Assembly: GCA_007129635.1 (NCBI GenBank)
Contig: SKVE01000653.1
Location: 1-6,126 of the forward strand
Length of the DNA stretch: 6,126 nucleotides
Reading direction: 5' to 3'
DNA from: Planctomycetaceae bacterium
GTDB lineage: Bacteria > Planctomycetota > Planctomycetia > Pirellulales > Pirellulaceae
In this document: piece by piece, positions 1 through 6,126 of the stretch
How positions within the stretch are numbered: the stretch's first letter is position 1
Layout of the letters: each line of letters starts with the position of its first letter
Notes under the pieces: model-generated
Told to the model about the DNA's origin: nothing
The model's input: the letters and a program-made list of their open reading frames with translations, nothing else
Database searches by the model: none
Made by a program: the position numbers and the translations under genes

Positions 1-12
1 CTGCGGGCCTCT

Positions 13-45
13 CTTCGTACGAAGCAATGAGCGGGTCCGTACGAA
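13..45. repeat. Paired CGTACGAA sites, one within a 12-bp palindrome
   Basis: CTTCGTACGAAG at 13-24 is a perfect 12-bp palindrome. Its CGTACGAA core (16-23) recurs at 38-45, within TCCGTACGAAAC. The cores are 22 bp apart, about two helical turns, so both would face the same side of the DNA. They lie about 25-60 bp downstream of the start point expected from the leftward promoter at 79-106. That position suits operator sites or leader elements of a gene beyond the left edge. The repeats are seen directly; a regulatory role is inference. Confidence 0.4.
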
Positions 46-3650: not shown

Positions 3651-3680
3651 TTGACAAGTAAGCTGCAGGTTACCTATAAT
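3651..3680 (+). promoter_or_regulatory. Perfect-consensus promoter of polA
   Basis: TTGACA (3651-3656), an 18-nt spacer and TATAAT (3675-3680) match the sigma70 hexamers at all twelve positions. Transcription should start near 3687 and give a leader of about 90 nt before the polA start. The promoter lies 38 bp after the transporter stop codon, so polA is probably transcribed independently of thiC and the transporter. The spacer is one base longer than the optimal 17, which would lower its strength somewhat. Confidence 0.75.
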
Positions 3681-3775: not shown

Positions 3776-6007
3776 ATGTCCCAGCCGAAGCACCAACGCC
3801 GCCTGCCCGGCTTCGATACCGCCCTGGAACCTGCCGCCCGAGTCGCTGAAGATAACGGGGACGATCCCATCACGGCGGAAAACGAGGAAAGAGCCGTCGA
3901 TGCTGTGGCGATTCGCGAAGAGCCAGATTCACCGGCCGACCCGACGCGAAGCGATTCGGTGCCGTTGGTCTGTGTGGTGGATGCTTACAATCTGATTTTT
4001 CAGGTGTTCCATGCGCTACCTGAGATGAGCAGCCCGGATGGTCAACCGGTAGGGGCGGTCCACGGGTTTCTGCGTGATATTGCGGATTTGATCGAAAAGC
4101 ATCAGGCGGACTACTTATTCTGTGCTTTCGATACGGAAGGGGACACGTTTCGCCATCGAATTTACGAGCCATACAAGGCCAATCGCGACGAGATGCCGGT
4201 GGACCTGCGTTCGCAGATCCCGAAGATCCACCAGGCGTTGGAGGCGATGGGAGTACCGATCCTCGAATGGTCCGGCTACGAAGCGGACGATCTGATCGCC
4301 TCGATGGCTCGCGAGATCGACCGGCGAGGCTGGCGAGGCCATTTGGTCACCAGCGACAAGGATTGTCGGCAGTTGATCACCGATCGGATCAACCTGTTCA
4401 ATCTTCGCAAGAACCAAATCTACGATGCCGCAGCGCTGGTCAAGGACTGGGGCATCCGGCCCGATCAGGTCGTCGACTTTCAGGCGCTGGTCGGCGACCC
4501 GACCGACCAGGTTCCCGGGATCCCGCTGATCGGTCCGAAGATCGCCAGCCAACTGCTGGGGCAGTACTCGACGCTGGAAAACGTGCTGTTGCATGCCCAT
4601 GCAATCAGCGGAAAACGGCGGCGCGAGAATCTGATTCAGGGCCGCGAGACGGCCATGCTCAGCCGCGACTTGGTGCGGCTGGTCGACGATCTGCCGATTT
4701 CGATCGATTGGGAAGCGGCTCGAGTTTCCCAATTAGATCCTGCCGCGATCCTCCCGCTCTGCCGCGATTTCGGCTTCCGTCGACTGGCCGACCGATTTGC
4801 TGCGATGGGAAACTCGCTTTCGCCTCCTCCAGGCGGGCCGGCGATGGTCGCAGGGCAAGCGAACCCCGAGAGCCCGTCGCTTGCTCGCGAGGTCTCGACC
4901 GCAGGGTACCATACCATCACCACGCGAGACGAGCTGACCGCGTTGGTCCAGCAACTGGCGGGGCAAGAGCAGATCGCCTTGGACACGGAAACCACGTCGA
5001 CCAATCCTCGCTGGGCGGAGATCGTCGGCTACAGCTTCGCTTGGAGACCGGGCGCAGCCTGTTACATTCCCGTTCGCACCCCCCCGGGCGAACCCTGTTT
5101 GCCGTCCGGACTGGTCGCCGACCAGTTGCGACCGGTCCTGGAAGATCCTCGGATCAAAAAGATCGGTCAGAACTTAAAATATGACATGATCGTGCTGCGA
5201 TCGGTGGGTATCTGGCTGCAGGGACTGAGCTTCGACACGATGGTCGCCGACTATTTGATCGATCCCGGCGAGCGAAATCACAGCCTGGACGATTTGGCTC
5301 AACGATACTTGAACCACAACACGATCAAGATCGAAACGCTGATCGGCACCGGCAAGAGCCAGAAATGCATGGATCAGGTGCCCGTTTCGCTGGTCAGTGA
5401 TTACGCGGCTGAAGACGCTGACATCCCCCTACGATTGATGCCCCTGTTGCATTCGCGTCTGCAGGAAGACGGACTGGTCGACCTGTTCCGCGACCTCGAG
5501 ATGCCCCTGATCGAAGTGTTAATGGAAATGGAATACGAGGGCATCATGGTCGACCCCGCCCGGTTACAAACGCTGGGCCAACGGTTCGGCCAGCGGATGG
5601 AAGCGTTGCAGCAGGAAATCTTCCAGTTGGCCGGGAAGACCTTTAACATCGATTCGCGTTTGCAGTTGGCCAAGGTCCTGTTCGAGGATCTCCAGTTGCC
5701 GGTGGTAAAAAAGACAAAGACAGGCCCGAGCACGGATGTCGAGGTATTGACGGAATTGGCCAGCCAGCACGCGTTGCCGGCGCGGATCGTCGAGTACCGT
5801 CAGAACGCTCGGCTGAAGAGCACGTACGTCGACGGATTACTGCAGTTGATCCACCCGGTGACCGGGCGGGTCCATACCTCCTTCAAGCAGGATGTCGCCG
5901 CCACCGGGCGGCTGAGTTCTCAGGAGCCCAATCTACAGAACATCCCCGTGCGAACGACCGAAGGCCGCGAGATCCGATCGGCATTCGTCCCGGGCGACGA
6001 AGATTAG
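3776..6007 (+). CDS. polA: DNA polymerase I, cut by in-frame TAG before motif A
   Basis: Repair and Okazaki-maturation polymerase; 743 residues before the stop, where about 970-1000 would be expected. Numbered from ATG 3776 (GTG 3770 also possible): an acidic extension at 1-63; a 5'-nuclease domain at about 64-340 with acidic sites D69, D119, E169-A-D171-D172, D194/D196 and D241/D244, plus a helix-3-turn-helix at about 248-261; a DEDDy 3'-5' exonuclease at about 376-560 with D403/E405, D470 and Y543/D547, so proofreading looks competent; then the polymerase thumb and early palm, ending with TGRLSSQEPNLQNIP (710-724) and IRSAFVPGDED. TAG at 6005-6007 ends the frame six codons before the motif A aspartate, and the fingers and the rest of the palm follow only past the stop. 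As read, the product would keep both nucleases but lack polymerase activity. The identity is certain; the stop could be a real mutation, a recoding site or a sequence error. Confidence 0.95.
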   Translation: MSQPKHQRRLPGFDTALEPAARVAEDNGDDPITAENEERAVDAVAIREEPDSPADPTRSDSVPLVCVVDAYNLIFQVFHALPEMSSPDGQPVGAVHGFLRDIADLIEKHQADYLFCAFDTEGDTFRHRIYEPYKANRDEMPVDLRSQIPKIHQALEAMGVPILEWSGYEADDLIASMAREIDRRGWRGHLVTSDKDCRQLITDRINLFNLRKNQIYDAAALVKDWGIRPDQVVDFQALVGDPTDQVPGIPLIGPKIASQLLGQYSTLENVLLHAHAISGKRRRENLIQGRETAMLSRDLVRLVDDLPISIDWEAARVSQLDPAAILPLCRDFGFRRLADRFAAMGNSLSPPPGGPAMVAGQANPESPSLAREVSTAGYHTITTRDELTALVQQLAGQEQIALDTETTSTNPRWAEIVGYSFAWRPGAACYIPVRTPPGEPCLPSGLVADQLRPVLEDPRIKKIGQNLKYDMIVLRSVGIWLQGLSFDTMVADYLIDPGERNHSLDDLAQRYLNHNTIKIETLIGTGKSQKCMDQVPVSLVSDYAAEDADIPLRLMPLLHSRLQEDGLVDLFRDLEMPLIEVLMEMEYEGIMVDPARLQTLGQRFGQRMEALQQEIFQLAGKTFNIDSRLQLAKVLFEDLQLPVVKKTKTGPSTDVEVLTELASQHALPARIVEYRQNARLKSTYVDGLLQLIHPVTGRVHTSFKQDVAATGRLSSQEPNLQNIPVRTTEGREIRSAFVPGDED

Positions 6008-6126
6008 AAGCTGATGACGGCAGATTACTCGCAGATCGAACTGCGTGTGCTGGCCCACTTCTGCGACGATGCGGCGTTACGGCAGGCTTTTGAAGAAGAC
6101 CAGGACATTCACGCATTGGTGGCCAG
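6008..6126 (+). pseudogene. polA: Continuation of polA past the TAG: motif A and start of the palm/fingers
   Basis: The polA frame continues unchanged after the stop: KLM, then TADYSQIELRVLAHF, then about 20 residues including FEEDQDIHALVA, open to the window edge. TADYSQIELR is family A polymerase motif A, and its catalytic metal-binding Asp is codon 6023-6025. FEEDQDIH corresponds to the FAEGKDIH segment of E. coli Pol I. No frameshift is needed. An ATG at 6014, seven bases after the stop, could in principle restart translation and yield a separate C-terminal polymerase piece, but there is no good ribosome site before it. Marked as pseudogene only because of the interrupting stop; if the TAG is an error this is simply the rest of polA. 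Confidence 0.85.

What the first reader, a model, noticed from the sequence alone, without database searches (positions are those of the whole stretch)
6005..6007. In-frame amber stop just before the catalytic motif A of DNA polymerase I
The frame reads AFVPGDED, TAG, KLMTADYSQIELR with no indel, and conservation is high on both sides. Counting back from DYSQ, the stop falls where Taq polymerase has Trp (EEGWLLVALDYSQ) and E. coli Pol I has Tyr (EDYVIVSADYSQ), as recalled. TGG to TAG is a single transition and TAY to TAG a single transversion. Possible explanations are a sequencing error, a real nonsense mutation leaving a nuclease-only Pol I, an amber suppressor, or a split polymerase. thiC in the same window ends in TAG where expected, which argues against general reassignment of amber.
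Basis: partly seen in the sequence, partly recalled or inferred. Interest (0 to 1): 0.75.

Follow-up and report, generated by a model that had tools for sequence, protein, structure and literature searches.

The report
Likely false stop in planctomycete polA
A DNA repair polymerase gene from an uncultured planctomycete carries an in-frame stop codon close to the broken end of its assembled sequence, and this is most likely a wrong or minority-strain base in the assembly rather than a working stop.

Summary
The window is a whole 6126-base contig of a fragmented, 64% complete planctomycete bin. Its polA frame starts at ATG 3776, stays open to a TAG at 6005-6007, and resumes without an indel. One Pfam domain (DNA_pol_A) runs through the stop. 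The contig ends 119 bases after it.

The two closest genomes have TAC (Tyr) at this codon, so Tyr, not Trp, is the likely parent residue. No stop occurs there in 100 distinct relatives.

Amber reassignment is disfavoured. RF1 is encoded in two pieces, TAG ends 107 of 463 predicted genes, and no CUA tRNA was found among the few tRNAs recovered. In 0.94 Mb of the bin, 3 of 15 stop-interrupted candidates are TAG, and polA is the only one with the same Pfam family on both sides.

The gene shows no clear decay. Two overlapping contig-end pairs in the bin disagree by about 3%, which fits mixed strains. I judge the TAG most likely a consensus error or minority-strain base. A real E. coli polA1-like nonsense allele is the main rival. 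Reads were not available.

The parts
3776..6004 (+). polA open frame (743 codons) from ATG up to the TAG; P0004 in the protein database is this product
3968..4453 (+). 5'-3' exonuclease N-terminal domain (PF02739)
   Evidence: residues 64-225 of window:3779-6004
4454..4738 (+). 5'-3' exonuclease C-terminal SAM fold (PF01367)
   Evidence: residues 226-320
4907..5461 (+). 3'-5' exonuclease domain (PF01612)
   Evidence: residues 377-561
5561..5998 (+). first part of the family A polymerase domain (PF00476 profile positions 3-149)
6005..6007 (+). in-frame TAG; Tyr (TAC) in the two nearest genomes, Trp (TGG) in G003 and most other planctomycete relatives seen
6011..6124 (+). continuation of the polymerase domain (PF00476 profile 154-191) with motif A DYSQIELR, intact
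6014..6016 (+). ATG two codons after the stop; a possible restart codon, also ATG in the two nearest relatives (TTG in G003)
   Evidence: function not tested
6126..6126 (.). end of contig G000:C849, 119 bases after the stop; no overlapping or continuing contig found in the bin (a very short overlap could be missed)

Best explanation
An in-frame TAG interrupts the Pol I frame 119 bases before the end of its contig, and it is most likely a wrong or minority-strain base in a fragmented metagenome assembly rather than a working stop in the organism's own polA. The inferred steps are these. The assembly stopped at this point because the reads there were thin or came from more than one strain. The consensus took a base at the third position of a codon that is tyrosine in the closest relatives. 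The organism would then make an ordinary full-length Pol I. Shown directly: the stop, its place, the intact sequence around it, and the Tyr codon in relatives. Not shown: reads, coverage, and the missing end of the gene.
For: The window is an entire 6126-base contig of a bin in 1022 contigs, 63.6% complete, and the stop lies at its tip. Bases within 121 of a contig end make up only 3.6% of the 938,938 usable bases of this bin that I read. The gene shows no clear decay: the 39 codons after the stop differ from G002 by 4 synonymous and 2 replacement changes, and amino-acid changes private to the window number 23, the stop included, against 20 private to G002. None of 100 distinct relatives has a stop here. 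Two pairs of contig ends in the same bin overlap with mismatches, 3 in 112 and 5 in 148 bases. In the open frame of the second pair 4 of the 5 changes are synonymous, as expected of co-assembled strains. PMC7111523 (passages) says that coexisting strains fragment assemblies and that composite reading frames may be chimeric.
Against: The tip is not noisy in general: bases private to the window are 5 of 122 comparable sites in the last 150 bases and 70 of 1840 elsewhere; private replacement codons are 3 of 50 against 18 of 732, P 0.15. dN/dS of window-G002 is 0.175, somewhat above 0.125 and 0.130 for the other two close pairs, which leaves room for mild relaxation. Nothing here separates a base error from a real, recent nonsense mutation, which would also leave the rest of the gene intact. 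No reads or coverage were available. E. coli survives with a polA amber (PMC6379578, passages), so a real stop need not be lethal.
Confidence: 0.66

Rival explanations
1. A real, recent nonsense mutation, fixed or segregating, that leaves a Pol I with its 5' nuclease, its 3'-5' exonuclease domain and part of the polymerase domain, but without motif A and the rest of the active site, much as the E. coli polA1 amber leaves a nuclease without polymerase.
For: Both nuclease domains are matched nearly end to end before the stop. E. coli polA1 (amber at residue 342) is viable, and the N-terminal nuclease alone suffices for growth (PMC6379578, passages). The tip shows no excess of other differences.
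Against: In a 0.94 Mb sample no other stop was shown to interrupt a domain, though L291, L321 and L326 are not settled and three candidates had no Pfam match to judge by. The codon is sense in all 100 distinct relatives. The stop sits at a contig tip. The lethality of D705A in E. coli (PMC3686724, passages) suggests that a long inactive Pol I can be worse than a short one; this is inference.
Confidence: 0.23
2. A two-piece Pol I: translation ends at the TAG and restarts at the ATG at 6014, so that the rest of palm and fingers is made as a second chain that joins the first.
For: An ATG lies two codons after the stop. A split Pol I has been engineered in E. coli, at a different place (PMC3686724, passages). 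One database piece, P0157, ends at AFVPG, a few codons before this site, on a contig of 181,979 bases; why it ends there was not worked out.
Against: The ATG is an ordinary codon in the two nearest relatives. No relative of the 100 carries a stop at this codon, and of the listed matches in 60 genomes only one piece, in G008, has a stop inside, a TGA in the N-terminal part. The cut would fall inside one domain. Of 14 shorter pieces that I read out of 120 listed, several (such as P0121 and P0140) turn into unrelated sequence at other points, as frameshifts do.
Confidence: 0.05
3. A CUA suppressor tRNA reads the TAG, and a full-length Pol I is made.
For: The position tolerates many residues (W, K, H, N, C, S, Y, R, Q, M among relatives), so almost any inserted residue would do.
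Against: No CUA anticodon among the 16 tRNA genes of the bin, in further contigs, or in the 30 tRNA loci read from the three same-genus genomes out of 166 matches. The bin is too incomplete to exclude one. TAG ends 107 of 463 predicted genes.
Confidence: 0.04
4. General reassignment of TAG in this lineage.
For: None found.
Against: prfA (RF1) is present in the bin in two pieces on two contigs, each below the whole-protein cut-off because partial, and over the cut-off in G001, G002 and G003. TAG is a common terminator, also in thiC of this window. In-frame stop candidates are TGA 7, TAA 5, TAG 3.
Confidence: 0.01

Closest known systems
E. coli polA1 (amber at residue 342; PMC6379578 and PMC3686724, passages read)
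   Same: A nonsense codon in polA that would leave the 5' nuclease and remove polymerase activity.
   Different: polA1 stops after 341 residues, before the polymerase; here the stop falls after 743 residues, inside the polymerase domain, and its reality is unproven.
Full-length DNA polymerase I of related planctomycetes (G001, G002, P0001)
   Same: Same family and motif A (DYSQIELR), 85-95% identical over the compared parts.
   Different: They are open past this codon to the C-terminus and carry Tyr there.
Interrupted genes caused by assembly or strain mixing in metagenome bins (PMC7111523, passages read)
   Same: Short contig, gene at the tip, two overlapping contig-end pairs in the bin that disagree.
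   Different: Only one base is in question and the tip is otherwise clean.

Membership tests
DNA polymerase I (family A) | 5' nuclease, 3'-5' exonuclease and family A polymerase domains in order | tested here: met
   the polymerase domain is cut by the TAG and then by the contig end
DNA polymerase I (family A) | one uninterrupted open frame | tested here: not met
   TAG at 6005-6007
polA1-like nonsense allele | stop present in the organism's own gene | not testable with these tools
   needs reads or a resequenced sample
polA1-like nonsense allele | 5' nuclease domains complete before the stop | tested here: met
   PF02739 profile 2-164 of 164, PF01367 1-95 of 97
Assembly or strain artefact at a contig tip | feature lies near a contig end in a fragmented bin | tested here: met
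   contig ends at 6126, 1022 contigs, 63.6% complete
Assembly or strain artefact at a contig tip | excess of private differences near the tip | tested here: not met
   5 of 122 against 70 of 1840
Assembly or strain artefact at a contig tip | reads disagree with the consensus | not testable with these tools
   no reads available
Amber reassignment | release factor RF1 lost or changed | tested here: not met
   RF1 present in two pieces
Amber reassignment | many in-frame TAG codons in conserved genes | tested here: not met
   3 TAG among 15 candidates in 138 contigs; only polA has the same Pfam family on both sides
Amber suppression | a tRNA with CUA anticodon | tested here: inconclusive
   none among those found, but the bin is incomplete and 30 of 166 matches in relatives were read
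Split polymerase | relatives or paralogues split at the same place | tested here: not met
   no stop at this codon in 100 relatives; no second family A polymerase in the bin; P0157 ends a few codons earlier and is unexplained

The most novel reading that the evidence does not exclude
The TAG is real and fixed, and this planctomycete runs a two-piece Pol I: a nuclease-plus-thumb chain ending before motif A, and a catalytic chain restarted at the ATG two codons later.
Probability: 0.04. Interest if true: 0.6.

Novelty: not a real feature. Interest (0 to 1): 0.14.

Why it matters
If the stop were real, it would be a natural counterpart of the classic E. coli polA1 amber, showing a wild bacterium living with Pol I nucleases and no Pol I synthesis, or with Pol I in two pieces. 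As it stands it is a reminder that a single stop at the tip of a metagenome contig needs reads before it is called biology.

Tried and rejected
Trp as the parent residue: rejected, because the nearest relatives have Tyr. A second polA or a continuing contig in the bin: none found, though an overlap of a few bases could be missed. A chimeric tip from another organism: rejected, because the 39 codons after the stop stay as close to G002 as the rest of the gene. A generally noisy tip: not found. Amber reassignment: rejected. I looked for overlaps between contig ends. Two pairs differ by 3 of 112 and 5 of 148 bases; one pair shares 63 bases exactly, 13 short of one end; one pair matches at only 82.5% over 63 bases and is probably a repeat; and the window's first 24 bases equal the end of contig C815 (L268). 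No overlap at the polA end was found. The pattern search for tRNA ends was too loose to use. The first scan for interrupted genes was swamped by shadow frames and was replaced. Of its final 15 candidates, five have different Pfam families on the two sides (L171, L220, L260, L301, L329), six have a match on one side only (L241, L267, L291, L293, L321, L326), three have none (L223, L242, L278), and one, polA, has the same family on both. In L326 a partial AAA_16 match (profile 2-51 of 167) stands before a TGA and nothing after it, so an interruption there is not excluded; L291 and L321 are not settled either. A structure prediction was not run, because it could not tell a real stop from a false one.

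Full report
Observation. The window is the whole of contig C849 of a bin of 5,010,328 bases in 1022 contigs, 63.6% complete and 2.3% contaminated. The organism is a planctomycete by its relatives: the nearest named records of the same gene are Planctomycetaceae bacteria PLM2.Bin2 (92% identical) and CSSed162cmA_153 (85%), which match G002 and G001 in contig length and identity. The polA frame opens at ATG 3776 and is read to a TAG at 6005-6007, then goes on without an indel for 39 codons to the contig end at 6126. Pfam finds the 5' nuclease, the 3'-5' exonuclease and the start of the polymerase domain before the stop, and the next part of the polymerase domain after it. The domain search of the genome gives one match, profile 3-191, with one TAG inside.

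What stood at the codon. Both nearest genomes have TAC (Tyr); the third same-genus genome has TGG. The database proteins P0001 (95% identical over the searched part), P0002, P0003 and P0005 have Tyr, and P0006-P0008 have Trp (8 of the 120 listed proteins were read, P0004 being the window's own). Of 109 fetched loci, 3 lacked the motif; after dropping duplicates, 100 distinct sequences remain, not all planctomycetes, with W 64, K 8, H 6, N 6, C 5, S 4, Y 3, R 2, Q 1, M 1 and no stop. The residue is therefore free to vary. The parent residue here was most likely Tyr, not Trp. Bst Pol I (name recalled) has Trp at the aligned place in the five alignments shown.

Is the gene decaying? Not clearly. 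dN/dS of window-G002 is 0.175 over 781 codons, somewhat above 0.125 for window-G001 and 0.130 for G002-G001; the excess lies mainly in the first 324 codons (0.243). After the stop, 4 synonymous and 2 replacement differences separate the window from G002 over 39 codons. The window has 23 private amino-acid changes, the stop included, and G002 has 20 (all). Any real stop must be recent.

Is TAG read as a residue in this organism? Probably not. RF1 (prfA) is present in two pieces on two contigs, profile 5-195 and 204-353, and over its cut-off in the three same-genus genomes. Among predicted genes in the contigs sampled by then, TAG ends 107 of 463, TGA 250 and TAA 106. No CUA anticodon was found among 16 tRNA genes of the bin, in further contigs, or in 30 tRNA loci of the three relatives (30 of 166 matches). 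The bin holds too few tRNAs to exclude one.

How often are genes interrupted in this bin? I fetched 200 contigs by region. Of these 63 read as N and were dropped. With the window, 138 sequences and 938,938 bases remain. A coding-potential scan gave 15 places where coding sequence seems to run through a stop: TGA 7, TAA 5, TAG 3. The two sides were searched apart. Five places have different Pfam families on the two sides and look like neighbouring genes (L171, L220, L260, L301, L329). Six have a match on one side only: in L241, L267 and L293 that domain runs to its expected end or start, while L291, L321 and L326 are not settled. L223, L242 and L278 have no match. polA alone has the same family on both sides. 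One clear interruption in 0.94 Mb is what a low rate of consensus errors would give; the expected rate is recalled, not measured.

Contig ends. The stop lies in the 3.6% of sampled sequence within 121 bases of a contig end. Two pairs of contig ends in the bin overlap with mismatches, 3 of 112 and 5 of 148. In the open frame of the second pair, 4 of 5 changes are synonymous and 1 replaces Glu by Asp, as between co-assembled strains; the first pair lies in sequence with internal repeats and could be a repeat. Three further end matches were seen: 63 bases exact, 24 bases exact at the window's other end, and one of 82.5% over 63 bases. PMC7111523 (passages) describes how strain mixtures fragment assemblies and yield composite frames. 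Against this reading, the polA tip has no general excess of private bases: 5 of 122 comparable sites against 70 of 1840.

Relatives and splits. Of 60 genomes searched, the window's own included, 58 have a polA match (G036 and G058 have none); of the listed matches only one piece, in G008, has a stop inside, a TGA in the N-terminal part. A search for shorter polymerase pieces listed 120 proteins, of which I read 14. Several, such as P0121 and P0140, turn into unrelated sequence at other points, as frameshifts do. P0157 ends at AFVPG, a few codons before this site, and I did not find out why.

Mechanism and rivals. I commit to an artefact: a wrong or minority-strain base at a contig tip, with a normal Pol I in the cell (0.66). 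The main rival is a true polA1-like nonsense allele (0.23). E. coli polA1, an amber at residue 342, is viable, and the 5' nuclease part alone is enough for growth (PMC6379578, passages). A two-piece enzyme restarted at ATG 6014 (0.05), a suppressor tRNA (0.04) and code reassignment (0.01) are less likely.

Verdict. The stop is really in the sequence, the list of explanations was sound, and the dullest of them fits best. Only reads can settle it.

Noticed in passing
window 3651-3680: A perfect sigma-70 consensus (TTGACA, 18, TATAAT; 12 of 12) stands upstream of polA; it was the one site found, with 1.1 promoter-like sites expected by chance at the scan's looser cut-off.
   Followed up: no
window 1-24: The first 24 bases equal the last 24 of contig C815 (L268 6504-6527), which suggests that the two contigs are neighbours. 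The shared stretch contains the palindrome CTTCGTACGAAG.
   Followed up: partly
G003:C24:216-3433 and G003:C30:117622-119192: Dense clusters of tRNA genes in a same-genus genome, possibly tRNA arrays of a mobile element.
   Followed up: no
P0157, P0121, P0140 (protein database): Short Pol I pieces on contigs of about 182-224 kb. P0121 and P0140 turn into unrelated sequence as if by frameshift, and P0157 ends at AFVPG, a few codons before the site studied here.
   Followed up: partly
L326 6841-6843: A TGA inside a coding stretch with a partial AAA_16 match before it and none after; possibly another interrupted gene in this bin.
   Followed up: partly
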